A DNA stretch of 64,000 nucleotides from Bryoerythrophyllum caledonicum (lineage: Eukaryota > Streptophyta > Bryopsida > Pottiales > Pottiaceae), in assembly GCA_963971425.1 (NCBI GenBank), contig OZ020520.1:26939535-27003534 (forward strand), in the 5' to 3' direction. This document shows positions 3,263 to 57,775 of the stretch, one piece after another; position 1 is the stretch's first letter; the number at the start of each line of letters is the position of its first letter. Both the position numbers and the translations under genes were made by a program. Under the pieces are notes generated by a model. The model had not been told where the DNA came from. It made no database searches and worked only from the letters and a program-made list of their open reading frames with translations.

Positions 3263-3264
3263 TA

Positions 3265-30599: not shown

Positions 30600-32739
30600 A
30601 TGTGTGATGAGCAAAATCATCATCAAAAGAAGAACTCCGGTTTCCAAAGGGGACAGAAGTGAATAAAGTGTATGTTTGTTCCACCACTAAATCCATGTCC
30701 ACCAGACATAGGTTTAGTAGTATGGAACTACTCCTCCCTCTGAGGGGTAGACAGTATGTAGCCAAAAATCAGTAACCAAGAACCAAGGACCAACCAGAGT
30801 TACAAGGCTTAGTTCCAAGAGATGATATGTAAAGATTAATTATGTGTTTTTAAAAGGTTTTAAAGGGTATCATACAATTTTGAGATAGGTTGGTTATTTT
30901 TGAGTTATTGTTTGTGTAGAACTATGGACATTGCATGTTGGATAGCAATGGTGTTGATTTTTGTGAATGTCTTTTAAATTGGAATAATTAATAATGGGGA
31001 TATTGGATGTATTTTTGAGACTTTTCATAGAGGGGGTAAAGGTAGTAGCTCTAGCTCCAGCAGCAATGACAAGAAGGGGGTCAACTTTCCATCCAAGAGC
31101 TACAATGTCATTAATAAGTTGTTGGTATTTATTAATTTTGTTTTCAATTGCTTCTGGGGAAAATCTGTAGTACTTGAATTCAATAGATTTGATAGTAAGG
31201 TTTGTATTTATGTGGTCTGGTGGAGCGTCTTTATATGGTAGTCCTTTGACGCATAGTATGTTTGGTTTGAATTTGGCATTACAGTGACATCTTAGGTTCC
31301 ACATGTGCATAAAAGTAGCTAAGGAGGGACCGTGTTTTCTTGTAATTTGTTGTTGAAGGTTCCGGCCTTCATTAGTATATAACATTATGATTTATTTGAG
31401 GATATTATTAGTTTTCGGATCTCCCATACCACTTTTTGTGCCTTTTGACGATTGGGGAGTAGATGTGATGGTTTTGACATTTAAGGAGTATGTGTAGCCA
31501 TGTATTTAGGTCCGTGGAGGTGCATATTGGGCATGTTATGGATGGAAATCGTTCCATTTCCGACATATTGTCCACTACATAATTTGATAAGGCATGTTTT
31601 TTGTAAATCTATAATTGTGGGATTTTCCCAAAAGTTTGTAGTGTGTTCATTATCAATGTTGTTATTACCGGTTCATTTGTCTATGTTAGGAATGTTTAAG
31701 AGATTAATTCCAAGTTGATAATTAGAATTTCTTATTCGAAATATTTATCTAAAAATCTTATGGGGCCTTTGTCCCGGGTGTCTTCCATAGAAGACCAATT
31801 TTCTCTTTGGAAGTAGTATGAAGTAGTGTGGGCGTGTTCATGCCAGTGTTTGGCATTTCTATGGGATTTACCTAGTCCTTCTTTAACTAGTTTATCCGCT
31901 TGTTCGTTTCCTTACATGCGCTTTAACTTTACGAAGGGTTGTAACTGGTGTGCGATTTTGTAGCATTTGAACCATAGATGCTAGTATGGCTTGGTCGGGG
32001 TGGCTATTGTGGAGGGTAGGGTATGTTATTTTCTTGTTTAATAGATATAATACGTTTATATAATCTGTAAAGATGTGCGCGGGTTCATTAGTGTAGTGTG
32101 TAGTGATAATTTGGAGGATTTTATGGAGGGCCACCATTTCTGCTCTGAGGATATTTTGAAGTCCATGTAATCTTTTGGATGTTTTTTTTTTTGTGAAATT
32201 GTAAATGTCATATCTTGTTTTTTCTCTATGCCAATGTCTGAGGCTTGCTTCTGTTGGTTCTTTGAAAGAACCATATGTGCAGTAACAATATGCGGGTTTG
32301 AATTTGAAATGGATATATTCACCATATGTGGAGAGGGGGGGAGTGGTGTAGTGAGGCGGGTTTGTATTATGTTTTGCATATTTAAGTTGAGATCATTTTT
32401 GTTGCAATTCACCCGGGTTTGGAAGGGTGTAGGTGGGGCTATTTTTGTGTATAATTGGCATATGTTGAGGTTATTTGTTATGGAGGTATGTGTGGTAAGT
32501 TGTTCCATGGTACCAATGTTGGTGGTGTATGCATAGTATTTGTATGGTGGATGACTTGAGCCTAACTTTTGTTTTAATATTCGGATGGAATAGTGGGTTC
32601 TTCATATGATACTGAGTCTGCCTCAAATAACGCAATGATGTGAGAATCTGAAATGGGCCTGAGTATAGATTGAAGTTTTAGTACCAGTTATCATCTGGTG
32701 TGATAATAAGTGTGAAGGTGAATTTTCGGTCATTTTGGC
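30600..32739 (-). mobile_element. 3' half of a minus-strand LINE copy, split by the giant element
   Basis: The same LINE family as 9745-12064, read on the minus strand. The 3' tail with a (TTC)-like end is at about 30605-30680. The endonuclease-like frame is at 30894-31385 (KFKPNILCVKGLP, IENKINKYQQLI, AGARATTFTPS). RNase H remnants lie at 31892-32137 (HIFTDYIN, RKVKAHV). The upstream segment ends at 32739 within a GCCAAAATGACC stretch. Its missing 5' neighbour sequence resumes at 56540-57775, so the two halves were once contiguous. Frameshifts and stops make it non-functional. Confidence 0.85.
32732..32739. repeat. Left target-site duplication of the giant element (ATTTTGGC)
   Basis: Eight bases of LINE sequence directly before the element's left end. 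Differs at one position from ATTTTGAC at 56540-56547. Confidence 0.75.
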
Positions 32740-33184
32740 CGTAGCGACGCTATCTTGTAAGCGGTGAGCACCCAGTGGCAAGCGGGGAGCAGCCAGTGGC
32801 AAGCGGTGAGCATAAAAAATCCTAAAATCTTGAATTTTTTTGTCATTTTTTTAAGAAAAAACTGAAATTCGAGGTTTTTTCAGCAGATCATCAAATTTTG
32901 GTGACATATTTTTCAAAAACTTCTAATTTTAGAAAATACCCTATAGCCGTGGTATACTGTGAAATTGCGTGTTTTTCCTGTATTTTGGTCTTTTAGAGTT
33001 CCCTGTTTTAGTTTAAAGGTGTGTCACAATTTTTTTTCTGGAGGTCCTACATTTGTAAATTGCCATATTAGAATACAAAGCACATATTTAGTTAGGTTTA
33101 GGATTTAGGCGTTGTGGTAGACTAGTATACAAAGCGGACAATTTTGGACAGTACTTGCTAATTTATGATAATATTGATCTTTTG

Positions 33185-33265
33185 ATACAACGGGTATCAC
33201 CTAGGTATTAAGTGGATATTTCACTAGTATTAAATCGGTACCACATTCGATTTACATGGGTATTA
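33185..33265. repeat. Subterminal GGTAT(T/C) repeats, left side of the giant element
   Basis: ACAACGGGTATCACC, CCTAGGTATTAAG and GGGTATTATC occur within 80 bp. A matching cluster is at 56097-56205, so both lie roughly 350-450 bp inside the ends, in the same orientation. They could be transposase-binding sites, which is inference. Confidence 0.5.
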
Positions 33266-33403
33266 TCTTTTAACTAAGAATTGCACAAAAATCACCTTCG
33301 CATTCCATTAAATCAATGACGGACTTAGCATGTATAGAAGATGCTTCACTTGAGCAGCCAAGAAACATTAATATTTCTGATATAGACGACTTGAACGCCT
33401 TCC

Positions 33404-35783
33404 TCACGCTCGTTTGGTGATGTTGGCAAGCTCGAGAATGCGTATAACTTCGTTAAAGCTATAGCTTGGAGCATGCATGAATAGGTCCTCTTTGTAGTCC
33501 ATCTTACATAGGTAAGGTAAGATGTAATACACATGCTTGTAATACTTCCATTGCCCCTTCTTTCCCAACGCTTCGGATTGCATCTTCAAAAAATCAGGGC
33601 ATGAATATCCTGGGAGGTCCGTAAACGTGACACAATAGGACTTGTTATTCCCCGTGTCAAGAATGATAACGCATCCCCATCTCGGATACGGTATGGCAAA
33701 CAGATTCGAGACGTAGCAGTTGCCAGTTATTCATAAGAGCTGCACTTGACCACTTGTTGCATTGGTCAATTGTGGGAGCATCTGTTGTTCTACGAATCGC
33801 GTACCCATTCCGAAAGTTGTGGTGAGAATTGGGATTTGCTGGAATGGGGAAGTGAGAACGCGGAAGAAGCATGTCCATAGACACTTGGAATTGTCTTCGT
33901 GGTGAAAGAGCTCCACGCTGTTGCAATTGAAAACCTGCTTCCTCCAATGCTAAAACCTCCTGCACAGTTAAATTTGTGCCAAGTTTCACAGGTCACGATA
34001 TTGGAACTGCTGGCCAATTCATCACGAACACTTTCTTCGACCCCTTCATATAGCGGCCTACATCGTCTGGACAAAACCAGAACTTCGCAGTAACAGTGCG
34101 TGGCGACCTATAATCCTTCTTTATACCCGAATAGGTAGGGGCGGGAGTTCCATGACTTCCACGTGCAACTTTGGTGTTGCAAGGCTCACCAGTGTCAGCC
34201 TGCAATGCTTGGCATTTTTTAGCTGATTTTTTGGGGAGCCGAGCAATGTGCCACTTAGACGGATCACAGTCCGATTTGAGAACGGATGTTGTATGTAGGA
34301 CACCAGAGTCGTATCCGCCAAGGGCCTCCTCGATGCGAGCCCGAGTCACCCTTTTACCATCACGGGGAATTGAATAGTTCACCGTATCGGACCGGTGGGA
34401 ATCGTGGCACGACCTGGGTGGCATGTCAAGCTTGCGCTTCGTGGATCCAAAAATCTCCGCACCTTCTAAGCTGCATGTCCTGGTTAGTAAATCCTCAGCT
34501 CCAGGGAAGTTCCTAACAGCATCAGCTATGAGTTTAGGATCACCCAGACGTTGTGCGGATCGCAACCAAAGCGTACCTTTGTCTGGACCTTTTCCCGACG
34601 CGCCGCCCTTCAACCATGCTCGATAGGAAGTAATCTGCATGAAAGCACAACGAGGTCGTCTACGGTTGCTGCATATAGACACGTCATTGTGTTTCCAGAT
34701 TGTTGCAGCCAATAGTTGTAGACTGTTTCGGCAAGCTTGCAGGAAGGCATGTCAGCCCTCTCGTCAAGCGTGAGATCATGAGGAAACGCAACAACCGTCA
34801 TTAAATATGGACTGATTATTCTTGAAGGATCTAATGGCATGTAAACTAAATAGAGCATGAAGACGACTTACAAGCTGCATTGCGCCGCCCCATTGTCGAT
34901 AACGGAAGTGCCAGAATGCCATCCAGTCCTCGAGAGCACGACGTCCGATTTTGGTGGTGGCACCGGAGGACACCCACCACGCTCGAATGACATTGTACTG
35001 AGCTTCGGCCTCGTCATAGGTCTTCATATTTTTCCAGATCTTGTAGAGGGCAATATATTGCTCTTAGAAGCCAGGAAGAATGCTTCTGGAGGTCGCACGC
35101 TGGAGACACTTTGTCCAATGAAATAAGCATGTTCGTTCTCTGTTATCCATGGGCTTGTCCTTGTCGCCGCTGCTATAAACTCGGCGAACGGCGTGCCAAT
35201 TTGCACCAGCACTGTCAGCCATGAAGCCTTTGAAGTTCACGTCTTCTAGGCCATGTTGTTTCATAGTATCATTTAGATTCTCCCAGAACAACTACTGCGC
35301 CTGAGCATCCTTGGATTGCATGTTGCACATGGCAATTGTCATGACCTTACGGTACTTGTTGTCGTACACATGACATGCCATGGTAGTCCAATCTTTAACT
35401 CGTTTGACATGATCAAACATCAACCAACAATCTTTAAGGTCATTCCCGGGTTGCATATGCCTAACAAAGTCTACACCATTTCCACATCGGTCGACAGACA
35501 TTTTTAAAAGGAATACTTTACCTTGCGACTGGCCTGGAAACTTGTTTTCGTGGATGAAGACGAATTTGGACGACTCCTTCAGCTCCATGATGTTGTCCAT
35601 TATACCCTTCCCTCCACTGTAGAACTTCTTGTACGTGGACACTAGATTCTTTATATTCGGAGACGAAAGAGTCTCGAATTGATCAAGGACAACATCCAAA
35701 GATACTTCTTCAAGGTTGGGCAACTTAGAGTGTGGACGGATCAGGTAGTCGGAAAGGAAATTCTTGCTCGCAGCCATGACAAT
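33404..35783 (-). pseudogene. MULE-like/SWIM transposase pseudogene, 3' segment
   Basis: The catalytic and C-terminal part of a Mutator-like transposase. In order on the minus strand: a KNFLSDYLIRP region (35783 downwards); LMFDHVKRV with a candidate first catalytic Asp; DNKYRKVMTIAMCNMQSKD; GFMADSAGANWHAVR with a candidate second Asp; ERTCLFHWTKCL; FWHFRYRQWGG; KWHIARLPKKSAKKCQ; a KFWFCPDDVGR region; and a SWIM-type zinc finger near 33500-33610. The SWIM finger is damaged: C-x-C reads Y-x-C (GYSCPDF) and C-x-H reads Y-x-H (YKHVYYI). In-frame TAG (35292) and TAA (about 35064) and frame changes show decay. The gene's 5' parts lie beyond the two nested elements, at 39858-40218 and 48133-48985. 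Confidence 0.8.
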
Positions 35784-36229
35784 CAAGGTTGTCATAACGG
35801 ACGGATTGAGGTGATCGGACGGGACAACCGGACGGGCGGTCCGGACGGCACAGACGGACGGTTCGGACGGATTGCCCGAAGTGCGCCCACTATTTTTTTG
35901 CAAGTAAGAAATTTTTATTGTGATCGCCACGTCACAAACGGACGTGTCACGCCACCGTGGCACTGGGGCGGGGACGTCTCCGCCCCTAAATGATAGGGGC
36001 GGAGACGTCACCGTCCCTCCCCGCCCAATTTTGGAATCAGGATCTTTAAACGGCCATATATCACTCAAAAATAGTTCAAATGAAGCGTGTGATGTGTTTT
36101 TTGGCATCTAAGGAAAATTTAAATGCCAAATCACACCTCAAATGCTTGATTTGGGCTATTTTTGAGTGAGTTATGCCCATTCAAACATTTTGACTCCAAA
36201 TTTAGGCGGGGAAGGGGCGGGGACGTTAG

Positions 36230-36350
36230 GGGCGGGGACGTCTCCGCCCCAAAATGGTAGGGGCGGAGATGTCCCCGCCCCTAAATGGCAGGGGCGGAGA
36301 CGTCCCCGCCCCTAAATGGCAGGGGCGGAGACGTCACCGCCCCTCCCCGC
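36230..36350. repeat. GC-rich tandem repeat GGGGCGGAGACGTCCCCGCCCCTAAATGGCA-type
   Basis: Three to four units of about 32-33 bp built around the palindromic core GGGGCGGAGACGTC / GACGTC.CCGCCCC, in the subterminal region of foldback A. Related shorter copies occur at 35970-36020 and 39555-39640. Confidence 0.7.
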
Positions 36351-36813
36351 CCAATTTTGGAATCAGGATCTTTGAGAGGCCATATCTCACTCAAAAATAG
36401 TCCAAATTAAGCGTATGAGATGTTTTTTAGCATCTACGAAAAATTTAGATGCCAAATCACACCTCAAATGCTTAATTTGGGCTGTTTTTGAGTGAGTTAT
36501 GCCCATTCAAACATTCTAACTCCAAATTTAGGCGGGGAAGGGGCAGGGACGTTAGGGGCGGGGACGTGAGGGCGAGGACTCAACCCTTTGAAGGTTGTAG
36601 AGGAACAAAGTTGGGCAAACTCCATTCTCGCCTTGGCAAAGGCCTTCCTCCTTCCCATGCGTTAGAGAAACGATATTTTTAATGTAAATTTAGTTTTCCT
36701 TCCAACTTCTAGGGAATGACATGATTGGCGTGATGATTAGGGAATGCAAAGATCTTGTCGGATCCAAATATAGCGACTTTTTGTTATAAATGATTCTATT
36801 GGACTTGAATTAG

Positions 36814-37082
36814 GAGAAGAAGAAGAACTACGGTCTTCCAATGGGACCGGCGTGAATGTAGTGTTTGTTCATTCTCTTCACTAAGCATATGGCCACGGGA
36901 CATAGGCTAGTGTATAAAGAACTACTTTCCCCTCTCGAGGGTCAACACTTTTCCACACTAAGTGCTTCCCTACACTAATTGCATTAAAGATAACCAACAT
37001 GTCATCTCCCCCAAGGACTTTGTGGGTTCCCATACAACGAGGCTGTGGGATCTCCCACCATAATTGGGTGGACTATGGTGGT
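36814..37082 (-). mobile_element. SINE copy in left arm of foldback A
   Basis: Minus-oriented mirror of 38823-39091, with the direct repeat ACTTGAATTAG at 36803-36813 and 37083-37093. The tRNA-like head is missing; the 3' hairpin and (TTC)n tail (as GAAGAAGAAGAAC) are present. Confidence 0.85.
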
Positions 37083-38822
37083 ACTTGAATTAGAATGTTG
37101 TATTACGTTACAAACAACAAATTCTTTTTGACATTTTCAAAGAAGATAATATTCTTTGTACAAGTGAAACCTCCTTTATTATCGACGGACAAATACCATT
37201 GAGCAATGTGGTTTTAATATAAAGATGTGTTCTTTAATGACTCATCTTGAGGTCATATTCAAATTTATGAAACATGATGTCGAATCATCCAATGTGTAAC
37301 AACCCATTTGGAACAATCCACGAATTACTCTTCATAACCGTAGAGTCGATGAAATATCTATCTTTAAATTGTTGAGGTTATGATTATTTTTCGCTTTATT
37401 CAATCATAAAGAAAGATGATGCAAATAAAAGCATTCTCGAAAGGCCAGAATGTTCCAAAGTTGAAGTGGTTCTCTCACAACACTTCTTACCAAATGGTGT
37501 CAATTTAACTTTAAATTGATTAAACCTTGCAAAGGTTAGATGAAACTCCAAAAGGCTTTGCAACTAAGGGTGACACCTTCAAAAGGTCACATTAAACATG
37601 TCTATTGTAAAAGCTATGGATGTAGGGGAGAGATTCACGACCAAATGTTTTTTAGTATACATATAGATGTACAAAAAATATAAATGTCAATAGAAGCTCT
37701 AGTAAAATTTCTAGCAATATAGGACATAACTATTAACTTCTTTCTTGAACTCATGTCTATATACAATAATGATAGAACTTTGTATGGTTTGTATGAAATT
37801 CTTTTCCTAAATAAATATAATTTTGACGTTGTGATGTACTATACATATGCCGTATTTATAAATTGGGAATGTCAATTTCTTTATGTTCAAATAGAACCTA
37901 TTACATTTCCTCTAACACGTGCAAACTATTTATATGTTCCTTAACTTTTTTGTTTATCTTTCCATGCCCCTTCTTAACATTGGATTCAATTGTAGAATAC
38001 TTATATATAAACCGTATTACCTTCTTCTAAGATTCCAAAAACATAGTATTTTCTTTGTTGTTAAAATACATTTTAATCCAAGTAGAGCACGTTTACACTT
38101 TTTGGGGAAGTTGGGAAAAAAAGTAATCTCGAAGGGGCCACTCGCATAAATTGTAGAAACGACGTACGATAAATAAATAGGGGCAAAAATATTCACTTAG
38201 GATAAATTTTATAAAGAAAGTACATGAAACAAACATTGCTTTAAAAGTGTGAAATATGGTTACAAGTAATATATAAATAGATATAATGTCAAAGAACTAT
38301 GTAATTGATACATACAAAATATCATGGAAAAAATAGGTACAAAATTTGAATGGTAGATTATACTGATTTAGGTTCTCACTATTTCTTAATGGATGAAAAG
38401 GGGGTATTTATCGTGGGGCACTCATGCAACATTTTATTGTTAGGTAACTTGTACATTTCCTCCGTGGTTAGAAGTTTACACAAGCCCTTATGTTTGGGGA
38501 TATATATATTTCTCTCTCATTGCATGTTAAAATAATTCGATTCTAAAGTTAAGTTGCGTAATTCCTTTGTAAAATAAAGTTTAAGGGTTGTTACAAAAGA
38601 GATATATGGACATTGAAGGTTGCAACATTATGCTTCATAAATTTGAATATGACCTTAAGATGAGTCATTAAAGAACACATCTTTACATTAAAACCACATT
38701 GCTCAATGGTATTTGTCCATCGATAATAAAGGAGGTTTCACTTGTGCAATGAATATTATCTTCTTTGAAAATGTCAAAAAGAATTTGTTGTTTATAACGT
38801 AATACAACATTCTAATTCAAGT

Positions 38823-39091
38823 ACCACCGTAGTCCACCCAATTATGGTGGGAGATCCCACACCTCCGTTGTATGGGAACCCACAAAGTCCTTGGGGGAGA
38901 TGACATGTTGGTTATCTTTAATGCAATTAGTGTAGGGAAGCACTTAGTGTGGAAAAGTGTTGACCCTCGAGAGGGGAAAGTAGTTCTTTATACACTAGCC
39001 TATGTCCCGTGGCCATATGCTTAGTGAAGAGAATGAACAAACACTACATTCACGCCGGTCCCATTGGAAGACCGTAGTTCTTCTTCTTCTC
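38823..39091 (+). mobile_element. SINE copy in right arm of foldback A, 11-bp TSD
   Basis: Direct repeats CTAATTCAAGT at 38812-38822 and 39092-39102. The body runs from ACCACCGTAGTCCACCC to the 3' hairpin-like GGTCCCATTGGAAGACC and a (TTC)n tail. It is 5' truncated, without the tRNA-like head. Confidence 0.88.
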
Positions 39092-39857
39092 CTAATTCAA
39101 GTCCAATAGAATCATTTATAACAAAAAGTCGCTATATTTGGATCCGACAAGATCTTTGCATTCCCTAATCATCACGCCAATCATGTCATTCCCTAGAAGT
39201 TGGAAGGAAAACTAAATTTACATTAAAAATATCGTTTCTCTAACGCATGGGAAGGAGGAAGGCCTTTGCCAAGGCGAGAATGGAGTTTGCCCAACTTTGT
39301 TCCTCTACAACCTTCAAAGGGTTGAGTCCTCGCCCTCACGTCCCCGCCCTTAACGTCCCTGCCCCTTCCCCGCCTAAATTTGGAGTTAGAATGTTTGAAT
39401 GGGCATAACTCACTCAAAAACAGCCCAAATTAAGCATTTGAGGTGTGATTTGGCATCTAAATTTTTTGTAGATGCTAAAAAACATCTCATACGCTTAATT
39501 TGGACTATTTTTGAGTGAGATATGGCCTCTCAAAGATCCTGATTCCAAAATTGGGCGGGGAGGGGCGGTGACATCTCCGCCCCTGCCATTTAGGGGTGGT
39601 GACGTCCCCGCCTCTACTATTTAGGGGCGGACACGTCCTTGCGGCCAATATATTATTTATTGTAGTCAAGTATTCATTTTTATAGTTTAAATCCTGCGTG
39701 GCATCACTTTAGTTCATACGTGGCTGCCACGTCGCCTGTTTTTTACCTTGCAGGTAAGTCAACTCTATGTTGACTCTATCGGATGGGCGAGAGCTCTATC
39801 GGATGGGCAAATCGGACAGACGGACGAACTGGACGTCCGTCCAGTATGACAACCCTG

Positions 39858-40218
39858 ATGACAATTGCCGAATTAGTAGCCTTGGGCGTACGTTGGACTT
39901 ATTTTGCTATGCAATCGTGCATGACGTCCATGGCATCTTGATCTACGCCTTTCGAGATAGGATGAAGATGATGCCCCAAATGAATTGCAGCGCGTGTTCG
40001 ATCGCGATCGATAGATGTCACATAGTATATACGTGCATCACAAAGAGCAAGACAAATTGTAGGGCTTTGGCAGACCTTACATGAGAGCGTAGATTTCTCG
40101 GATGGTGCTCCATTCATTGAAAATGGAGTGAACGCAAACCCGCTCCACTCGGTCTCATTCGAGCGGCCATCGTTTCGTGACTGATAATCACAAGTGATGT
40201 TGAGGTACTCTAGATGCC
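39858..40218 (-). pseudogene. MULE-like/SWIM transposase pseudogene, middle segment
   Basis: About 120 codons of the same transposase, lying between foldbacks A and B. Minus-strand motifs include EYLNITCDYQSRNDG, NETEWSGFAFTPF, SCKVCQSPTICLALCDARIYYV (a cysteine-rich region) and TRAAIHLGHHLHPI. A TAA at 39899-39901 sits in IAK-stop-VQRTPKATNS. It joins in frame to the segment ending at 35783 once foldback A and one TSD are removed, and to the 48133-48229 segment once foldback B is removed. Confidence 0.82.
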
Positions 40219-40499
40219 CAGGGTTGTCTAATGTGTCGTGACGGACAATTTCTGTCACAATGTCACGATGTCACGACACAATGACGGCATGACATTGTGA
40301 CGGATCGTGACTTTACTGTGACGGGATGATTTTGACGTCAGAAAATACAATATTTACATTTACCGAGAGAGAGACACGTTGAATATAGAAAAGAATCTGT
40401 ATGCCACATGTGCAAACATGTCATCAACTACGGTAAATTCATGTCCCAGTAATTTTTAGCACGGGTTAAAGGAGTGTCCGCACCAATCCGAGCCTCATT

Positions 40500-48132: not shown

Positions 48133-48985
48133 TAGATGCCCCGTACATACAGATTTCCGGTACGTAAGACCAAAATCATTCTTGATATTTGTTGTCATTG
48201 TCTTGCACCACGTGTGACCATCATACTGTTTACTCATCCCATCTAGGCCTCCCCCCAAACTGTGGGGGAATACCCTCCAGGAGTGGAGGAAGTTCAAATA
48301 TCATGTCCCCATCATACTTTGGAGGCAAATACTTAACATGTTTCAAATCAAAACTATCAATATCAAATCGGGACAACTCAGACCTGGACCCTTTCCTATT
48401 ACAGGTATGCCGGACATGAATAAGTATGCTTCTGGCGTTTCTCGAGCTAGGATAAACTGGAGGCTTCCCTGAGGAATAAGACCGAGAAGCTTCAGCATAT
48501 GATGGAATTGGGGTAGAAATAGTACGAGTAGCTAACTGATGAGACGAGGACCAGGGGGATCTTTGACTCACCAAGGTTCACATTAGGTAGATCATCTTCC
48601 TCTGTATCGCTAAGAATATGGACGCTTGGAATTGACCTAGTGCCTAAACCGAACACGAGTTTGGTTTCACCAAAATCGACCGCAGGACTCATCACGGCTA
48701 CGGACGCATGAGCGGCCATTTGAACATCTGTAAGACCAAAAACTTTGAATGAACCAGGACACAAGTTCCAGAAAATCCTACTGCGTCACTATCTTTCACT
48801 TGATAAATGGACTGCTCGTGAATATCAACGCTATCATAGACCTCTTGTTCAATGTGGACAATACCAGCCCGATAACCAAAACGAACACATAGCAATGACT
48901 CGGAGATACAAACTATGCCACTGTCGCCAATGGGAACAATTAGTGGAGCACCGCCTTGGTGAGAAGTAAAAGACGCCATGTACAT
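48133..48985 (-). pseudogene. MULE-like/SWIM transposase pseudogene, 5' segment
   Basis: The N-terminal part of the transposase. The likely start is MYMASFTSHQGGAPL at 48985 (or MASF at 48979). It runs through DSGIVCISESLLCVRFGYRAG, then after a frameshift (about 48700-48760) VFGLGTRSIPSVHIL, then after more frame changes SFDLKHVKYLPPKYDGDMIF and DGHTWCKTMTTN, ending in TYRKSVCTGHL where foldback B inserted. Several frameshifts and the two insertions make it non-functional. The start faces the plus-strand ParB/methyltransferase-like gene, so the two genes are divergent. Confidence 0.65.
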
Positions 48986-50650
48986 TGACTACAGGTAAAG
49001 GTGTGAGGTTCTGTAATGTGCAATGACAACGGAATTGGGAAGGAGAGATAGATCTAGCTTCCCTCCCTCGTTCAAATATTGTACTGGAAAACAATTGATT
49101 GTGGCGGAAATATATAAATTTATAAGGGGTAAGATTACGGCGGAAATCTAAAATTTACGAAAGATTGAGATTACGGCGGAAATATTCAAATAAAAAATTA
49201 GAGTTATTCCTTTCCAGCATGTTGGCGGCTTGAGTGTACAATGCCACGGATTAAAATACATGAATAATTTGGAATAGAAAAGTTGTAAGCTAGAACACCG
49301 ATTAACAATATTGCGAGTTGTCTCGTTGCAACGCCTCATGAATTAAAATTTAGGAGTTCATGCCGTCATTATTCAAATTTCTAGGGGCTTAACTTAAATA
49401 GTGCCGTGTAATTGACGGCGCCCAACAGAAGATTAAATGGGACGGCTATTGAAAGACTACGCGACAGCTGATCAATTACAAGATCTGAGAAGAGGATAAA
49501 ATAAATAGTGGGTTTCTGGTGTAAACGGAAGCAAGACCGAGTATAACAAGGGCTCTAATACCGCAACGAAGGAGTATTGCACTAAGTTGTTTGGGTTTAT
49601 AGGGAGCTTCTGATGTTGAAAGAGAGTGTCGAGGAGGGGTGTGGCTATCGTGTAGATGATGACAAAGATAGGTGGGCGGAAGAAGCAAAGTATCAATTTC
49701 TCTAATCCGAATTAGACGCGGGCTCGAAAGGATCGGCGACTATAACAGTCATTGTTGGCTGCTCAGAACAAGGAAGTAGAGATATCGAAATCGGGCGAAT
49801 GATTTAGGAATTTGTCAAGTATCATTTGGGACCGCTTCCCGTCTAATCAATAGGGGAGGTATGCTATATTTTTTATTTTATTTATATCTAAGAGATTAGC
49901 TGAATTGACGAATGTCAATAGGTCCCTCTGATTCGTGACTCTCGGTTTGTTATTCAAGAGTGTAGCATCTTTGTTAGAATTCATGAGCATCTTGAAGAGG
50001 ATTACTTTGATAGAAGATAACTCCATGAAAATGTATCAAAGATCCAGTACCGCAGAGACCTCTTTGCAAGTAGGTAAGGGATCTGTAGGCAGTGAAGGCC
50101 AATCAGACAGCCAAAATAGTGACTCAAGTGAGGAGTATGGGAGCTGAGGAAATCCATCACGATCCACAATGGTCGAAGACGGTTCTTCATCAAAAGCACC
50201 CGCAATTGGAGCAACGGCTCAACGGGGTCGCAGAGAGGACCTGGCTGTAAGATTACGGGAATCAGAGAGGGATCCACTAAATCAGGTATCTCACAACGCA
50301 ATTGTTATATGAGATATTTGATTGCTCATTACTGTGTACTTGTTCGAAGATATTATTTTATACGTCTCGTCGTGCTACCCATTGGTCATGGAGCTCCCTA
50401 ACAGTCATAGTGCACCTTTGAGTTAGGGTTTGCGATCTGAAAGGCACTTCCCGGAATGAGCTCTCAGGTTCTACTTCTCCGAATGAGCTCCCTATTGCTC
50501 CGTACATTTTGCACTATGGCTTACCCGCGTTGGTCAGTGGGGGAGAGTTTGTCAATGTGACGTGCATAATTGGAGTTCGTGTTCAGGGAATTGCGCGCGT
50601 TTTGTTTCGTTTCATGAGTCGCCTGATTTCGTAAAACCCTAACTCGTCAC
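48986..50650. promoter_or_regulatory. Intergenic region between the two divergent genes of the giant element
   Basis: Separates the start of the minus-strand transposase (48985) from the first plausible exon of the plus-strand gene (about 50.7 kb), so it probably held a bidirectional promoter. No recognisable coding region; the GGCGGAAAT motif repeats near 49102, 49139 and 49174. Confidence 0.4.
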
Positions 50651-50676
50651 TTTGATTGTGTCCAATTCATCTTCTC

Positions 50677-50853
50677 GGTAGGCTTTCTGAGTTTTTTGAG
50701 TCATTGCAGGTTTTAAGCGTTGGAAAGGAGCGAGGTAGTTCGCGGGAAGGCAACCCGATTTTGCAGAAAACTTTCGATGAACTCCAGATACGACATCTTT
50801 TGCATTCTACGAATCTTGTCATGTTGGGTGAGGGAGGACGGGGTTTGCGTTAG
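50677..50853 (+). CDS. Possible 5' exon of the ParB/methyltransferase-like gene
   Basis: A short open frame with LSEFFESLQVLSVGKERGSS and ILQKTFDELQIRHLL. The spacing of hydrophobic residues and the KERGSSR motif could be the start of a ParB-type region, but the exon boundaries are not clear. Low-confidence assignment based on position and orientation. Confidence 0.3.
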   Translation, partial: GRLSEFFESLQVLSVGKERGSSREGNPILQKTFDELQIRHLLHSTNLVMLGEGGRGLR

Positions 50854-50959
50854 GGTGAGGTATGATGGGGTCGGTTTTTAGTTCGTCAAAGTTTGGTTTT
50901 AAAGCATGTGGGAGGTTATCGATCTTGATCTTGTTCATGTTGGTGGGGGTGAGGTCGAG

Positions 50960-51590
50960 TGGTGTCGGTCGGGAGGAGGTTTGTGGACGTTATGACGGAG
51001 ACTGTAGTGACAGTGCTCGTTTATGCTGAGGGTAGAGTCTAGAGTTTGCTAGGTTGGGAGAGGGTGGTGAGGGAGAGGTAGGTTTGATGTAGGCTGGGAG
51101 AGGATGGGGTGATATCTTCATGCATAATACGCATGCTGAGGGAAGGTGAATGCATCCAACACAAAGTGTGTGAATGTGCGAGACGAAGTCCTCTCCAGCA
51201 GGGAGGGGATTTTGGAATTTTTACCAAATTCAGTGATCCCTGAATTTGACTTTCGGATCCAAAAGCCGGTTTCAGGGATCACGGTTTATTGTAAAAACTC
51301 TGAAATCCCCTCCCAGCTGGAGAGGATTTCCTCACGAGCCTTCTAGTATTTCTGCTCATGTTAGATATGCATGCACATGCACGTCCATGCTTAGGCTCGT
51401 TGTTTCAATGGGAGGGAGGTCTAGGTAGGTAGGACTGAGGTCGGTAGATCAAGGGAAGAGGGGGGCGTGTGCTCGGGTGGTGTCGGGAGGGAGGAGGTTT
51501 GTGCACGTTATGAGGGAGACTGTAGTGAGACTGCTCGTGTATGCTGAGGGTAGAGTGTAGAGTTTGCTAGGCTGGAAGAGGGTGGGGTCA
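50960..51590. repeat. Direct duplication of about 105 bp
   Basis: 50964-51066 and 51477-51588 share GGAGGAGGTTTGTG, GGAGACTGTAGTGA and TATGCTGAGGGTAGAGT in the same orientation, about 510 bp apart. Confidence 0.7.
51190..51325. mobile_element. Small MITE/inverted repeat (136 bp)
   Basis: The ends CCTCTCCAGCAGGGAGGGGA and its near-perfect reverse complement (TCCCCTCCCAGCTGGAGAGG) form a hairpin, with a second inner inverted pair around CAGTGATCCCTG / CAGGGATCAC. The target duplication is unclear. It lies in a putative intron of the ParB/methyltransferase-like gene. Confidence 0.6.
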
Positions 51591-51820
51591 TGTTATGTTG
51601 TATTTGTTTATCGTGATGAGGGATGGTAAGCTAAGTGAATGGTGAGAGAGGAGGTGGTGCGATCAACGTGGGGAGAGGGAGGAGTGATGTTCTGATGTAT
51701 GTGTCTCATGCTGAGGCTCCGCTTCCGTGTTGAGCACGAAATGAGAGATGTGTATGTTGTAGTTTATTGTTCTTATGTGTTCAGAAAATGGCTTCGATTT
51801 CTAATGAGTTCCTATTGCAG

Positions 51821-54800
51821 GTTGATTCTATGGAACCTTCAGGTACTTCATCGCGCAAAGTCCTCAAGATTGTGGAGGACGAGGCAACCATCCCTGAACT
51901 TGTCGATGAGCTTGGGCTAGCTTCAACACTACAGTCTTTGCGGAGGTCCATCCGTAGGACCTGATACGACATCCTACAGAGAAGCATCTGCTCCATTGCT
52001 GGTGATCTCGCCATTTTCCTTTGCCGTATGGTGCCCATGACTGAGGTTAGATTACCTCTTCGGAGCGATGTCGAGAAACTGAAGGGGGAGTTTGTGAAGG
52101 GGTATCGGCTTGGTTCCGCATGTTTTTATGTGTCGCTGAAGAGTTTCTCCCTTGCGGAGAAGCGGGTGCTTCCAGCAGACCGGTCAACGTGGTCCGAGCT
52201 ATGGCTAGAAGAGGACAGGAAGTTCGAGGAGTTGTTGAAGACTCGTCCGGAGTACTTGGCGTTCTCAGAGAAGTTTTTTTTTGTGTGGGATGGCAATCAT
52301 CGCCATATGGCTTGGATAGAGGCCATTTCCCAGCTACACTCCTCCGATGTCACCTTCCACGTGCCCGTTAGAGCGGTGGTTATCGAGCCCACTATCGAGA
52401 ACCGACACATCTTGCTCAACCTGATGACCGACTTGAATAGGTAAGCAGGATCAGTATTACTCCAAATTTTGTTTCTTTAAGTTGCTACAACTATTGTACT
52501 TCGTTTAATCTGTATGAAATTTTCTTTTGTCGCAGGCAAAAAGAATCTGATCACGTTGTGCAACACCTCACATACGACATAAAGCGTGTTTAGCATTTTG
52601 GCCTCTTAGAGTTTGAGCAGTTGAAGGGGCTCATCAGCAATGAAGATTACGAAGTCAATGTCTTTGAGTGGGCAAAGAAGGGACAACGAAAGTGGTATCA
52701 TATGACTCTCGAAGCATTCGTAAAGCTCATGTATGAGGTACGTGGTGATCTAGAAAAACCAGGTAGCACTTGCCATTCAGCTCCTTTTTATATTCGAGTT
52801 TGAAGTTTTAAAAATATTCACGACCTCATGTTGTCCACAACGGGACCTGATTGTTGTTCAAGAGGAGCAGATCCAGAAGTTCAAGGATCACTTGATCACG
52901 GGTGTTAGTGAAGATCGGCGTGGAAGTGCGGCAGATTTGGTGAGTCGCTGCACTGAAGCTGTGCAAAAGAAGAAGACAACTTGCCAGACCATGCTCACTC
53001 GAATGTTGGTAATTGCCAACCCAGCAAACGGGGAGGATTTCTTCAAAGAGGTAGGGTAAATGTTATTCATTTTATCATTTTTCATAATGATTTCCTAACT
53101 TATGGCCTTCTAAACTCTACTATAATGGTTGATATTGTGATATAGGTGAATCGTCACTTTGATGTTTACCAGGTGCGGCCCGAGATGACTCTCAAGAAAC
53201 TCCAGCTCATCGCCACGGCTAGGGTAGCTGCGAAGTTCAAGTCGCGTTGGTGCAGGTGGTGGAACATGAGCAAGGGCAACATGATGGAGTATAACTTCCC
53301 CGCTTCACCAACATCGGATAAGGTACTTCGTGGCTGGATTGACAAGGCAGCGTTTTGGGCTGGGGTAAGATCCAATCTTTCTTGACATTCACATTTTTTT
53401 TGTATGATTGTTCTATGATAAATTCCTAACTATGTGGATTTCGTGATACAGCTAGAAGAAGAGTCTGAGAAGCTCTACGCAGTGATTCTCATTGAGGACA
53501 ACATTGTCCTTAAGACTGAAGGGCTTCCAAATCCCGTCCCCTCCATTGAAAAATGGATTGAGGCAAAGAGCATGACGTTGTGGACTAAGGTGTTCTCTAC
53601 TCACATCGGGAAGAGGGGCTCCTACACGAAGAACGAGGAGTTTATGGTACATGACGATTGCGAAAAGGTTATGAAGCGAGCAGTGATGCAATATTTTTGG
53701 AGAGTGCTCGTGGCCCATGGAGCATTGTTAGCCGGAGATCTACCCATTTGTTTCACAAAGTGGATAGATACTTCTGCTCCCGAGTGTATCTTCACAGATA
53801 CTCAGAGGCGTCGATTTTCTGTGCACCACCTCCTCCAATGCCCGTGGTACTTGGAGATGCGGGAGATGGTTCCCACCCCTGGAGTCGAGGTTCAACTACA
53901 AGTGGCCTGCAAATCCATTGCGGTTCCTCCTGCTTCCAGCAACGCACTTTCCTTGTTGGCGGCTCTGTTGGCAGCGTTTGAGGAGCAATCCGAGAAGGCC
54001 AAAGCCAAGGCTGCTGAGAAAGTGGCTAAGGCAGTAATTAAGGGACATGAGAGGGAGGTTGCTAGGCTGGAGAAGGAGAGTTCAAAGAAGGATAAGAAAG
54101 AGACGAAGGAGAGGTACAAGAAGTTTGCGGCGTTGGTGGCAAAGGAGGGGCCTCAAAAGTTGTTTACTCCACTAGGGGGATTTGGAGGATTTGCAGTCCT
54201 TCTAGCGGTGACACTGACCATGGGCGTTTCACCCTTAGCTAGCAGCTGACCTTCTACCTTTGATGTGAAGCCCTCTCAGACGGTGTACTCGATTCCAATA
54301 TTCGATCGTCCTCAGTCTTCTGGTGCTCTGAAGGTGATGTGTGAGAGTGCCCTCTCCATTATGTCTCTATTTGATTGTGTCGTTGTCGAAGATAACAAAT
54401 CGGCAGCTTGGAAGGAGTTTCGCCTGTTTTTTTAAGGAGCAGTCAGGCTCATGGCATCGGCGACATGGGGCATTGGATTGCACTCTAGGTTTGGCGGATA
54501 TGGTACTGTTCGACGTTTCGGATGATTTACCAGTCCCCAACATTGATGGCTGCATCAACGTACTGAATTGGAACAAGCTTCCAACCCGGTTATCAGACGG
54601 AGGGAAAAAAAAATCCCATTGGATTTAATGGACCTTTGAGATGGTTGGGGCGTTGCTTCGTGACGGGGCACTGCTTATCGTGTTCTACCCGGATTCGAAG
54701 TTCATCTCCAATGAACTTATAGCCTGGGCCGATTGAACGGGATTTGTCGAGGTGACAAAGTGGTTTGCCATCAACGGGCTGCCACTTTTCCGCGATGGCC

Positions 54801-55380
54801 ACCCTGGGCGCACTCATAAGTGCTCCTTGTGAAGTGCTTCGTGAGAAAACTAGATCCCCCGGTTCCATTCTCTTTCTTTGATAGGATGGAGCTACAAAGA
54901 GATGGGATTTACTTGTCTTCACATGGTCACATGACCAATCTCATTACTCAGGAGACGCTGACCATGAGGGCAGATAGCGATGTACCTTGGCATGGTGCGC
55001 GAGAGAAGTCTACAAACCTCATGGAGGCTCTGATTGATCTTTGCACTCAGGAGGAGAACATTGTCCTGGATCTCACAGCGTCTACTAGTTAGTTCATTCC
55101 ATTACAAAATTCTTCTGTTTTACTCTCGCTTTCTAATGCTAACATCGTATGAATTGTTTTTTTTCATGAAAGGGCGTCTAGTAATGCCTGCAAGGCTCTT
55201 AAGCGGCACATTTTGGCACTGGAGGAGGACCGAGAGTTGGTGGAAGAAGTCCTTCTTCCTTTGATCCCTGACACTATTGAGGTCGAGTCAGCACCGCCAC
55301 AAGTGGTGGCGGGAGGCTCTTGCAAGCGCCCCTTAGATGTTGATAACGACAAGCCAGAGGTGAAGACCGTCCCAAAGTGA
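51821..55380 (+). pseudogene. ParB-like plus DNA-methyltransferase-like gene (multi-exon, decayed)
   Basis: Exons with consistent phase and GT-AG junctions: 51821-52440, 52536-52737, 52781-53050, 53146-53364, 53452 onwards. Exon 1 holds a ParB/sulfiredoxin-like pattern: a VRLPLRSDVEKLKGEFVKGY helix, then VWDGNHRHMAWIEAI (about 52284-52325) and HVPVRAVVI. A Lys/Glu-rich coiled segment follows (about 53980-54120). The 3' part resembles a permuted N4/N6 DNA methyltransferase: GALLRDGALLIVFYPDSKF (about 54640-54700), then LIDLCTQEENIVLDLTAST (55034-55088) with the SAM-binding DLTAS motif, then RHILALEEDRELVEEVLLPL (about 55206-55265). Breaks: TGA at 51961, TAG near 52591, TGA at 54247, a frameshift near 54428 and further stops. 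The domain calls are motif-based inference. Confidence 0.6.
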
Positions 55381-55497
55381 CATTGTGAGTAAGTCCTACC
55401 CTTTTTTGGTTCCAGTTTTGGAATGCGGTTTACAGTTGTAGCTTGACACAGGCTTAAATTCTTAATAAGACTTTATTTTGTACAATCGGCCTTCGTC

Positions 55498-55777
55498 GTT
55501 GATGGCATCATTGTCAAGGACTCATGTTGGAGGGCTTTCTCCCTTGTTGTTGGAGGTGAAGAGCCCCACGCGACGATTCACGTTGAATCCCTGGGATGCC
55601 GCTGTTGCAGACGCCATGGCAGCACAACATTCCCCTCCACGTCTTCAAACAGTAGTCCCATGTAGGTTTACTACATGTCCGTTCATAGATGGAGAGGCTT
55701 GCGTTAGTGGCTCGGAGAGTAGTGATAGTTTTTTGTATGATAGTGATTCCAATGACCTTTTCGCGGAGGGATCTTGA
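55498..55777 (+). CDS. ORF downstream of the methyltransferase-like gene, unknown
   Basis: An open frame of about 93 residues from ATG 55498 (MASLSRTHVGG), ending in an acidic serine-rich tail (SGSESSDSFLYDSDSND). It may be the last exon of the preceding gene, because an intron could link it across 55380-55490, or an independent remnant. No domain recognised. Confidence 0.35.
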
Positions 55778-56096
55778 TTCTTCTGCTTTGGTTTGTTGTT
55801 TTGTTTACCATCACACTACCAGTTGTTTGTCTTCATCATTGTCCCATCGTGAGTCATCTTCATTCACGTCAAAATCCCATTTTTTTCACGTATGTCTATC
55901 GAAAAACATCGTATGTCATGCATGGTGATGAGAAGATTTCGTTCTATCTACAATTCAATATATGATTTAAAATAAATATCCTTTGTAACCAAGCCGCATG
56001 TCCTCTGAGTTTACATGCTTTGTACCTTAGGCTTTGCTCTTTTTTAAACAACAGTTGTCGAAGAATTGGAATGTTTGAATTTAAAGTGGTTCGGAC

Positions 56097-56205
56097 ACAA
56101 CGGGTATCTCCATGGTATGACATTTTTATCACCTAGGTATTACATGGATATCACCAAGGTATTATAAGGGTATGAACTAGGTATCACATGGATACTGCCT
56201 GCCAC
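56097..56205. repeat. Subterminal GGTATT/GGTATC repeats, right side of the giant element
   Basis: Five to six variants, including ACAACGGGTATCTCC, CCTAGGTATTACATGG, CCAAGGTATTATAAGG and CTAGGTATCACATGG. Matches the cluster at 33185-33265. Confidence 0.6.
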
Positions 56206-56479
56206 CCTAAACCATATAATTTTGGTTTTTTCCATTGTATTTCATAGTCTATTGACTTGTCGCAATACCCTGAACTCTAAATCCTCACCCATAAGCGTCT
56301 CTTCCAATTTCAATTGAATTGTTGAAATCAATTCTAAACTATTGATACTTCCATATGTCCAAGTACATTGTCGTCGTAAATTTCTGTTTATTTTTCATAT
56401 GTCAACACAGTTTAAATAGAAGCCACAGCCATAGGCGACCCTTTCCAAATTCATCAAAAAACACTACCAAAAAAAGATC

Positions 56480-56539
56480 AAAAATTGAGTGCTCAAGTCT
56501 CGCCGCTCGCCGCTCGCCGCTCACAAGATAGCAATCCTG
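56480..56539. repeat. Right terminal GCGGCGAGC-type repeats of the giant element
   Basis: CGCCGCTCGCCGCTCGCCGCTC next to the terminus. The left end has GCGGTGAGC, GCGGGGAGC and GCGGTGAGC (32761-32811) in inverted orientation. Confidence 0.75.
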
Positions 56540-57775
56540 ATTTTGACCACAAGTCTTGCCCAATGTATTGTTTATTGTGTTTCTTCTACATTGTGGGGGT
56601 GTGCAATACCATTTCCAATCCATTTGTGGTCAAAGGTGTTTCCTAGTGAGCCAAAGATTTTGTCTCTTTCAAAGGAAGATGGGAATTTAGTGAGTTGGAT
56701 GGGGCATGTGACGAGGGATGAGAAGTATGAGTGTTGGATGTTGAAGGATGAGATTAGTGAGTCTAGAATGGCCGTGAAAAATGTGTATTGTGCAAGTTTA
56801 AGGGGGTTATTTATTGAGATGCGGTATTTATATCTTTGGTATAGCCAAACTATTTCAGTTTTGAATGCTTGGGTTGTTGGTTCTATGTTTGTGGGAGTTT
56901 GTGATTTGTTATGGTATTGGTTCCATAGCCATTGGAGTCTAGTGACGGAATTAGTGATTAGACGCCTTCCCTTGACTTTGTATATATGTGGGTGATCTTT
57001 ATTTATTTTAATTGTATTGCTTGATGTGAGAATGTCTTTTTCAAAGTTGCATTCAGTTGTGTGTATATTGAGGAGGGGAATGATTATGGATGGGGTCATG
57101 GATCTTGAGTCACAAGTTTGCTCTTGAAGGTGGTGTGCTTGAGTGATTTCTAAGTAGAATTTGTTTTGGGTGTTTTGATAATATTGTGTTAATTGTGTGG
57201 AGTTATTAGTGGAGGTGTTTTGGCCATGCAATGGAAAGAAGTTCCGTTGGGATAACCATTTGTTGTAGGTATTGTTACCGTGTTGCCACTGGCATAAATT
57301 TTGGTATCTTGTTTTATGATTTTGTTTGAGTCAATATGTTTTCAATGTTTATGGTCAGTAATGAGATTTATGGGATGTGTGGATGGATTTTTGAGGATGT
57401 GTATTGAGGGGAAGGAAGGAGTGGATGCGGTGAATTGGAGGGTGAATTGACGGGGGGTTGTTTCACGGTTGGATGTTGTTGTTGGTGGTGATATATGAGT
57501 CTCTGAGTGTGTAGGGTTTTGGATGTGTAGGACATGGTGAAGTGTATGTATTATGGCATGGGGGGTAGCAAAATAATTGTTGAGCAATATTAAGAGCGCT
57601 TTTTGCTAATTTTGATGGTGTAGCATGAAGTGTTTTGAAGTCATTGTGGTTCATCATATGTGTTCCATTTGGTAGTATGAAGTAATTCAAGTCAAAAATA
57701 TTTACTGGAAAAACTTTTTGTAAAAGTTTTTGGAAGAGGTGTTGCTTAATTCTTGTGTCATTTTGGGTTTCTTAT
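56540..57775 (-). mobile_element. 5' half of the split minus-strand LINE copy
   Basis: Continues the LINE at 30600-32739 in the 5' direction. The minus-strand frames 56572-57231 and 57342-57690 contain FERDKIFGSLGNTFDHKWIG, shared with the LINE at 9745. Further upstream lies element sequence not present in the other copies (for example NYFILPNGTHMMNHNDFKTL). Its 3' edge at 56540 carries the ATTTTGAC duplication. No reverse transcriptase motif is visible in the retained portion. Confidence 0.8.

What the first reader, a model, noticed from the sequence alone, without database searches (positions are those of the whole stretch)
32732..56547. Giant 23.8-kb transposon carrying a SWIM transposase gene and a ParB/DNA-methyltransferase-like gene
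A LINE copy is split into two halves 23.8 kb apart. The break points carry an 8-bp near-perfect duplication (ATTTTGGC/ATTTTGAC), and the intervening DNA has imperfect inverted ends (core GCTATCTTGT(A/G)AGCGG) with inverted GCGG(T/C)GAGC repeats. Inside are two divergent genes: a MULE-like transposase with a SWIM finger, and a multi-exon gene with ParB-like and methyltransferase-like domains. Pairing a cut-and-paste transposase with a DNA-modifying enzyme suggests an element that marks its own or host DNA. Known precedents link other eukaryotic transposons with DNA-modification enzymes, but I do not know this combination.
Basis: partly seen in the sequence, partly recalled or inferred. Interest (0 to 1): 0.93.

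Follow-up and report, generated by a model that had tools for sequence, protein, structure and literature searches.

The report
Jumping gene with DNA-methylase-like partner
This stretch is a decayed copy of a large jumping gene, with nearly identical younger copies elsewhere in the same genome, that carries its own cutting enzyme plus a second gene resembling bacterial DNA-binding and DNA-methylating proteins, which offers a test of whether jumping genes mark their own DNA.

Summary
The insertion is real: an unbroken copy of the split repeat in the window aligns across the break. The target duplication is 10 bp (8/10 here), so the element is 32742-56539. It is not intrinsically 23.8 kb: two later inserts (35784-39857, 40219-48132, each with an identical 8-bp duplication) cut its transposase gene; without them it is 11,794 bp. 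The unnamed 437-Mb source genome has 844 exact copies of the terminal core. Of 17 long elements fetched, 16 match both genes, 15 of them simply divergent. Two copies are 99.65% identical over 14.9 kb at different sites, so the family moved recently. One has an intact 8-exon, 1,246-aa second gene. That gene is under purifying selection (dN/dS 0.07-0.21), like the transposase. Its methyltransferase end is supported near the Pfam cut-off, with D[VI]PE instead of DPPY in all 14 relatives aligned. Its 'ParB' end rests on a DGNHR motif and failed profile tests. MULE membership is plausible (SWIM, 10-bp duplication), unproven. The kind is in print: a ParB-like plus methyltransferase gene opposite a Sola1 transposase in Ectocarpus. 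New here: another transposase class, whole-element proof, selection and motif data. Self-marking is untested.

The parts
32732..32741 (.). Left target-site duplication, ATTTTGGCCG
   Evidence: 10-bp frame set by the family copies
56540..56549 (.). Right target-site duplication, ATTTTGACCA (8/10 identical to left)
   Evidence: break point agrees with the unbroken in-window repeat
32742..56539 (.). The transposon, 23,798 bp including two nested inserts (11,794 bp without them and their duplications)
32742..32769 (+). Left (transposase-side) terminal inverted repeat, TAGCGAC + core
56512..56539 (-). Right (second-gene side) terminal inverted repeat, CAGGATT + core, followed inward by GAGCGG-type short repeats
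48106..48988 (-). Transposase gene, 5' part (residues about 1-293 of the E14 ORF), decayed
   Evidence: tblastn with P0008/P0009 and E14 ORFs
39866..40218 (-). Transposase gene, middle piece between the two nested inserts (Cys/His-rich region)
34845..35783 (-). Transposase gene, piece with the D..D..CxxH pattern, ends at the intron donor
33407..34819 (-). Transposase gene, second exon with C-terminal SWIM-type CxC..CxH (partly lost in this copy)
40219..48132 (.). Nested insert 1, 7,914 bp, ends CAGGGTTGTC, 8-bp duplication TAGATGCC (40211-40218/48133-48140), hAT-like
35784..39857 (.). Nested insert 2, 4,074 bp, ends CA(A/G)GGTTGTCATA, 8-bp duplication ATGACAAT (35776-35783/39858-39865), hAT-like
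50010..50288 (+). Second gene, exon A (N-terminal, low complexity); in-frame stop in this copy
   Evidence: match to E14 residues 31-123
51821..52440 (+). Second gene, exon B with ParB-like FVWDGNHRHMAW motif; one in-frame stop in this copy
52536..52737 (+). Second gene, exon C; TAG where 14 of 16 copies have glutamine
52841..53050 (+). Second gene, exon D; its acceptor AG is AA in this copy
53146..53364 (+). Second gene, exon F
53452..55086 (+). Second gene, long exon G: middle region, motif IV (DVSD here, DVPE in other copies) to motif I; frame breaks in this copy
55171..55389 (+). Second gene, exon H (end of methyltransferase-like domain)
55484..55753 (+). Second gene, last exon
30890..32739 (-).
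56540..57330 (-). 5' part of the split repeat, PCIF1_WW-like ORF

Best explanation
This is a decayed copy of an autonomous two-gene cut-and-paste DNA transposon family. SHOWN: 10-bp target duplications; terminal repeats that begin CAGGA(T/A)T or CAGCGA(C/T), with single-base variants, followed by GCTATCTTGTGAGCGG and short GAGCGG-type repeats; a transposase gene and a second gene, divergently transcribed in 15 of the 16 two-gene elements fetched; two nearly identical 15-kb copies at different sites. INFERRED: the DDE-type transposase with zinc-finger and SWIM parts cuts and pastes the element in the usual way. The second protein (ParB-like end, long linker, amino-methyltransferase-like end) is a selected accessory factor of the element. 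It most likely binds the element's own DNA and acts on it, by base modification or by occupancy, to keep the element expressible or recognisable to its transposase. The existence and nature of the element is near certain (about 0.97); the self-acting role of the second protein is about 0.5; actual base methylation about 0.35.
For: Empty-site proof from the in-window repeat. Terminal core: 844 exact genome matches, reversed control 0. 10-bp duplications in 18 of 24 elements, two more (E13, E15) shifted by 1 nt; mismatched pairings at most 7/10. 16 of 17 long elements match both genes at E<=1e-4. From the gene side, 26 of 42 listed second-gene hits have an exact transposase match within 35 kb, all 26 divergent, 1.4 expected. 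E10 and E14 are 99.65% identical over 14,949 bp with different duplications. E14 has an open 8-exon, 1,246-aa second gene with GT-AG introns and open transposase exons. dN/dS 0.09-0.21 (ParB-like), 0.07-0.21 (methyltransferase-like) and 0.08-0.19 (transposase). Methyltransferase: PF01555 E=1.7e-5, 25.3 bits against a cut-off of 26.7, in 7 of 14 relatives, hhalign to four phage methylases probability 91, E=1e-6 over 60 columns. Precedent for an accessory protein acting on its own element: VANC of VANDAL MULEs (passage).
Against: No expression, binding or modification data. Motif IV is D[VI]PE, not DPPY/SPPY, in all 14 relatives aligned, so amino-methylation is doubtful. ParB_N (PF02195) gives no hit in this genome at E<=10 although 11 of 14 control genomes ring, and hhalign to four SopB-type ParB proteins is not significant. 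Young copies E10/E14 carry mostly C>T changes (39 of 50 polarised), densest at CG and CHG, as if cytosine-methylated, so the second gene does not fully prevent host marking. E22 is a 6.8-kb element with only the transposase, so the second gene may not be required in cis. 16 of 42 second-gene hits show no exact transposase match nearby. [quoted passage not shown] only a transposase remnant is divergent to it.
Confidence: 0.6

Rival explanations
1. The second protein is a catalytically dead methyltransferase relative that works only as a DNA-binding transposition or anti-silencing cofactor (MudrB- or VANC-like role), using the fold to read DNA.
For: Non-canonical D[VI]PE in place of DPPY in 14 of 14 relatives aligned and in 10 of the 12 element copies whose match covers the site; the two others are the decayed window copy (DVSD) and E19 (DVP then a stop). 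Purifying selection.
Against: Motif I-like DLTA(S/G)TG and the motif-X region are also strongly conserved, as expected if S-adenosylmethionine is still bound.
Confidence: 0.3
2. The second gene is a passenger, a captured host gene carried along without a role (Pack-MULE-like).
For: Some elements lack or truncate it (E22, E01, E18, E06).
Against: Held next to the transposase in copies with high or saturated synonymous change at dN/dS about 0.1; the DNA pattern of the gene has 163 hits with up to 3 mismatches, which is not a single host gene.
Confidence: 0.05
3. The transposase is not a MULE but belongs to another or an undescribed superfamily that also has SWIM and 10-bp duplications.
For: PF10551 MULE model: none of the 150 places listed lies in the 17 long elements or the window; PF00872 only E=0.023-0.18, in 2 of 25 relatives; hhalign to three MULE-model hits of this genome probability 0.2.
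Against: SWIM model hits 7 of 15 relatives at E<=10, best 0.0078; TSD 10 bp lies in the 8-11 bp range given for MULEs (passage of PMC6446971); D..D..CxxH pattern conserved.
Confidence: 0.4
4. The two repeat halves are independent truncated copies and there is no insertion.
For: None found.
Against: Unbroken alignment of the joined flanks, TIRs, duplication and 23 other copies with the same kind of ends.
Confidence: 0.01

Closest known systems
Sola1-1_Ec32 of Ectocarpus (PMC12477816; passages read)
   Same: Large DNA transposon; accessory gene on the strand opposite to the transposase, encoding a ParB-like domain plus a DNA methyltransferase domain (1104 aa there, 1246 aa here).
   Different: Transposase there is Sola1. 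Here it has a SWIM-type finger and leaves a 10-bp duplication (Sola elements leave 4 bp, recalled). I had no sequence of the Ectocarpus protein to compare.
Green and red algal transposons with such proteins (Iyer 2011, Petroll 2025; cited in PMC12477816, neither paper seen)
   Same: Said there to be similar proteins in algal transposons, possibly binding and modifying their own element.
   Different: Details not seen; the same paper mentions giant EnSpm elements with multiple accessory genes in red algae.
VANDAL / VANC MULEs of Arabidopsis (PMC6446971, passages)
   Same: Element group with SWIM fingers and an accessory protein that acts on the silencing of its own element.
   Different: VANC is an anti-silencing factor with no methyltransferase-like domain (recalled).
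TET/JBP-carrying fungal DNA transposons, KDZ and others (PMC12730594, passages)
   Same: DNA transposon paired with a DNA-modification-type enzyme.
   Different: Enzyme is a dioxygenase; Zisupton duplication is 8 bp.
Phage and bacterial N6/N4 amino-methyltransferases (PF01555)
   Same: Motif X to motif I region aligns.
   Different: DPPY replaced by D[VI]PE; fused behind a ParB-like domain in a spliced eukaryotic gene.

Membership tests
Cut-and-paste TIR DNA transposon | Terminal inverted repeats flanked by fixed-length target duplication | tested here: met
   10 bp; 18 of 24 elements at 8/10 or better, control max 7/10 in 552
Cut-and-paste TIR DNA transposon | Insertion into a reconstructable empty site | tested here: met
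   (window copy only)
MULE (Mutator-like) superfamily | TSD of 8-11 bp | tested here: met
   10 bp; range from PMC6446971
MULE (Mutator-like) superfamily | MULE / Transposase_mut profile match | tested here: inconclusive
   PF00872 E=0.023-0.18 below cut-off; PF10551 no listed hit in elements; hhalign 0.2%
MULE (Mutator-like) superfamily | SWIM zinc finger (frequent, not universal) | tested here: met
   Motif: C380, C382, C402 invariant, H404 at least 90% in 15 sequences. Profile PF04434 in 7 of 15 at E<=10, best 0.0078, cut-off not shown
KDZ / Zisupton | 8-bp TSD | tested here: not met
   10 bp here; 8 bp for Zisupton
Sola1 | Sola1 transposase | not tested
   No Sola1 sequence was held; TSD of 4 bp is recalled, here 10 bp
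N6/N4 amino-methyltransferase (PF01555) | Profile match over the family cut-off | tested here: inconclusive
   25.3 bits against 26.7, E=1.7e-5; 7 of 14 relatives at E<=1, best 1.6e-4; hhalign 91%
N6/N4 amino-methyltransferase (PF01555) | Catalytic motif IV (D/N/S)PP(Y/F/W) | tested here: not met
   D[VI]PE in 14 of 14 relatives; DVSD in the decayed window copy. Motif rule recalled
ParB N-terminal domain (PF02195) | Profile match | tested here: not met
   No hit at E<=10 in own genome, 11 of 14 control genomes ring; none in the 22 members of A4; hhalign to SopB-type not significant; PHROG 1033 ParB-like E=0.16-0.26
ParB N-terminal domain (PF02195) | (D)G(N/E/H)HR motif | tested here: met
   WDGNHR invariant in 20 aligned sequences; that this motif marks the ParB/Srx fold is recalled
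hAT (the two nested inserts) | 8-bp TSD and CAGGG-type ends | tested here: met
   TSDs ATGACAAT and TAGATGCC, ends CA(A/G)GGTTGTC; that these mark hAT is recalled; no hAT transposase looked for

The most novel reading that the evidence does not exclude
The second protein is a self-recognition and self-marking enzyme with a new active site: a ParB-like domain loads on repeats of its own element, and a methyltransferase relative with D[VI]PE in place of DPPY puts an unusual mark (or transfers methyl to an unusual atom) there. It would be a selfish, element-encoded epigenetic label used by several unrelated transposon superfamilies.
Probability: 0.2. Interest if true: 0.85.

Novelty: new variant of a known kind. 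Interest (0 to 1): 0.55.

Why it matters
Transposons that encode enzymes for DNA modification are known, but whether they mark their own DNA is open. Here is a family that moved recently, with an intact second gene in at least one copy, copies that lack it, short non-autonomous copies as built-in controls, and evidence by selection that the gene matters to the element. If the same gene pairing occurs with a Sola1 transposase in brown algae and a SWIM transposase here, the ParB-methyltransferase module may be shared among unrelated transposons, which would argue for a general selfish function. The conserved D[VI]PE is a sharp, testable prediction about its chemistry.

Tried and rejected
Rejected: independent truncated repeats; giant size as intrinsic; 8-bp duplication; alternative genetic code for the in-frame TAG of exon C (14 of the 16 copies whose match covers it have glutamine; E10 and the window have TAG); passenger gene. 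KDZ, Lanisha and EnSpm-like placement were considered and not followed because the duplications given for them are 8 or 2-5 bp.

Led nowhere: first search with the whole second-gene model (no hit at E<=0.001; probably the low-complexity linker); viral contig scans for either gene or the TIR (none); PDB sequence searches (nothing meaningful); NCBIfam and PHROGs (weak only); phage tblastn for the ParB-like part (one hit at E=6). Host name not determined: RuBisCO large-subunit frames exist on three small contigs, but their letters could not be fetched, and contamination is not excluded.
Full report
WHAT WAS CLAIMED. A repeat split by 23.8 kb, a duplication at the break, inverted ends, and two divergent genes, a SWIM transposase and a ParB/methyltransferase-like gene.

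THE INSERTION. The window holds a second copy of the split repeat, on the + strand at 9755-11773, unbroken. Its 9755-9887 matches 56673-56541(-) and its 9885-11773 matches 32736-30890(-). Flanks joined in a script, one duplication removed, align to it without interruption. The inverted core is found only at the two ends (2 hits with up to 3 mismatches allowed, 0 in 100 shuffles). The repeat was called a LINE; I could not confirm this: the ORF 56575-57330(-) matches PCIF1_WW (E=1e-7, 32.2 bits, cut-off 31.1), the ORF 31895-32392(-) matches RNase H only at E=0.077, and a third ORF gives only a weak unrelated hit (E=0.061). Its nature does not affect the break-point argument.

THE FAMILY. The window lies in an unnamed 437-Mb assembly of 894 contigs (C8:26939535-27003534). 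The core GCTATCTTGTNAGCGG has 407+437 exact matches there and 0 for the reversed control. Only the first 100 places were listed (C1 and C2 to 23 Mb). I fetched all 23 adjacent +/- pairs up to 26 kb among them: 17 long (6.7-25.6 kb) and 6 short ones of 204-238 bp that look like MITEs. The elements begin 7 nt outside the core, as a rule CAGGA(T/A)T at the second-gene end and CAGCGA(C/T) at the transposase end, with single-base variants in several; both ends of E20 are of the transposase type, and MITEs begin mostly with GAG or AAG. They are flanked by 10-bp duplications: 18 of 24 (23 plus the window) have 8 or more of 10 identical; E13 and E15 have a duplication shifted by one; E20, M03, M08, M21 have none recognisable. 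Mismatched pairings reach at most 7 of 10 (552 pairings). Identity per column is 17-21 of 24 inside the ten columns and 5-12 of 24 in the four columns looked at outside.

GENE CONTENT. tblastn of transposase relatives and the second-gene model at E<=1e-4: 16 of 17 long elements match both genes. E22 (6.8 kb) has only the transposase. E01, E18 and E06 keep only remnants of the transposase and part of the second gene; E20, E13 and E07 lack matches to an internal part of the second gene. In 15 of the 16 the two genes are simply divergent; in E20 the full transposase has the same orientation as the second gene and only a transposase remnant is divergent to it, so E20 may be a composite. From the gene side, without use of TIRs: a DNA pattern for the WDGNHRHMAW region has 163 hits with up to 3 mismatches, control 0, a pattern in the transposase 411 hits with up to 2, control 0; each listing is capped at 100. 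In the territory where the exact transposase list is complete (C1-C6 and the first 7.87 Mb of C7), 42 second-gene hits are listed (0, 1 and some with 2 mismatches); 26 have a transposase hit within 35 kb, all 26 in divergent orientation, against 1.4 expected at random (the C3 length in that control is approximate). The other 16 were not examined; an exact transposase pattern misses diverged copies. Conversely 29 of 100 listed transposase hits have a listed second-gene hit within 35 kb; the second-gene pattern covers one subfamily only. On C1, 7 of 12 second-gene hits have an exact TIR core within 6 kb downstream.

RECENT MOVEMENT. E10 (C1:19179001-19193963) and E14 (C1:59684733-59699695) are 99.65% identical over 14,949 bp between cores with different perfect duplications (TGACTCCAAC and GATTAATTCC). 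E14 has an open second gene: 8 exons, all introns GT-AG, 1,246 aa, and open transposase exons of 713 and 476 codons between stops. The start codon and first exon are a guess; there is no RNA evidence. E10 carries a TAG in exon C where 14 of 16 copies have glutamine. Of 50 changes between E10 and E14 polarised with E05, 39 are C>T: CG 15 of 1340 sites, CHG 9 of 1127, CHH 15 of 4616. This looks like deamination of methylated cytosines, so the host probably marks these elements; inference only. The old window copy shows no such excess: 534 of 1,740 differences from the state shared by E14 and E05 are C>T.

THE WINDOW COPY. Two nested inserts cut the transposase gene: 40219-48132 (7,914 bp, duplication TAGATGCC) and 35784-39857 (4,074 bp, duplication ATGACAAT), both with CA(G/A)GGTTGTC ends, hAT-like by ends and 8-bp duplication (that rule is recalled). 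Without them the element is 11,794 bp and 82% identical to E14 over 11,708 aligned columns. It is dead: 12 stops in the aligned second-gene pieces (3 of them in a piece that spans an intron), 10 in the transposase pieces, and the exon D acceptor AG is AA.

THE TRANSPOSASE. 109 relatives were found, mostly as separate exons: an N-terminal piece with Cys/His columns and a D..D..CxxH pattern (25 of the relatives aligned in A1: D537, D586, C615, H618 invariant, D520 at least 90%) and a C-terminal piece with CxC..CxH (15 aligned in A2). SWIM model: 7 of 15 at E<=10, best 0.0078. Transposase_mut: E=0.023 for the window model, 0.034 and 0.18 for 2 of 25 relatives, all below the cut-off. PF10551 MULE: 150 places in this genome, none of those listed within the 17 elements or the window. 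hhalign to three of those MULE-model hits: probability 0.2. So MULE-like by SWIM and duplication length (8-11 bp in MULEs, PMC6446971, passages), not proven by profile.

THE SECOND PROTEIN. 56 relatives, again as exons. Methyltransferase end: PF01555 E=1.7e-5, 25.3 bits, cut-off 26.7 for E14; 7 of 14 relatives, best 1.6e-4; tblastn against phages gives 50 records at E<=10, the 15 listed all at E of 1 or more, 10 of these annotated as DNA methylases or methyltransferases and 5 without annotation there; hhalign to four of these methylases 91%, E=1e-6, over 60 columns from motif X to I. Motif IV reads D[VI]PE in all 14 aligned relatives, down to 33% identity. In the 12 element copies whose match covers it, it is DVPE in 10, DVSD in the window and DVP-stop in E19. 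ParB-like end: WDGNHR invariant in 20 aligned sequences; PHROG 1033 'ParB-like' E=0.16-0.26 in the 2 tested; PF02195 finds nothing in the genome at E<=10 nor in 22 relatives; no match to SopB-type ParB by hhalign. 'ParB-like' is therefore a motif-level label. dN/dS between copies is 0.09-0.21 for the ParB-like segment (6 of 10 pairs; in 4 the synonymous distance could not be computed) and 0.07-0.21 for the methyltransferase-like segment (8 of 10 pairs), with synonymous distances often above 1.5, and 0.08-0.19 for the transposase C-terminal exon (21 pairs of 7 copies). Five copies without frame breaks in those segments were used for the second gene. In the protein searches, contig lengths 312,168 and 104,370 occur in both lists of relatives, a hint of linkage in other genomes, not proof.

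MECHANISM. Cut-and-paste by the transposase is inferred from ends, duplications and moved copies. For the second protein I favour action on the element's own DNA, either marking it or countering silencing, because it is selected as part of the element and joins a DNA-binding-like end to a methyltransferase-like end. Catalysis is uncertain because of D[VI]PE; a dead-enzyme cofactor is the main rival.

COMPARISON. [quoted passage not shown] I saw neither, the second is not held). The idea and the gene kind are therefore in print. The SWIM-transposase, 10-bp-duplication version did not turn up in the listings of ten full-text searches of an open-licence library, which miss most subscription journals. 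Verdict: new variant of a known kind.

Noticed in passing
56575-57330 (-) and in-window copy around 9755: The repeat that the element split encodes a PCIF1_WW-like ORF (E=1e-7) next to a weak RNase H-like ORF; a repeat carrying a PCIF1-like domain is unexpected, and its class is unsettled.
   Followed up: partly
40219-48132 and 35784-39857: Two large elements with closely related CA(G/A)GGTTGTC ends inserted into the same transposase gene, holding long internal inverted repeats that are 99% and 97% identical.
   Followed up: partly
L013-L014 (E14), about 6.5-9.8 kb into the element: A long intron of the second gene holds a tandem array with a unit of about 520 bp; seven units match one stretch of the window copy, 51195-51320. 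A possible binding-site array.
   Followed up: no
E10 (L011-L012) versus E14 (L013-L014): Fresh changes are 39 of 50 C>T with CG and CHG excess per site, which suggests plant-like cytosine methylation of young copies.
   Followed up: partly
L019-L020 (E20): A composite-looking element: one full transposase gene, one transposase remnant in the other orientation, an internally deleted second gene, transposase-type ends on both sides and no duplication.
   Followed up: no
59191-59550 (+): Short ORF with a Tc1/mariner-like helix-turn-helix look (by eye, recalled).
   Followed up: no
2289-3264 and 13570-14689: Complex direct and inverted repeat clusters with many partial matches to each other.
   Followed up: no
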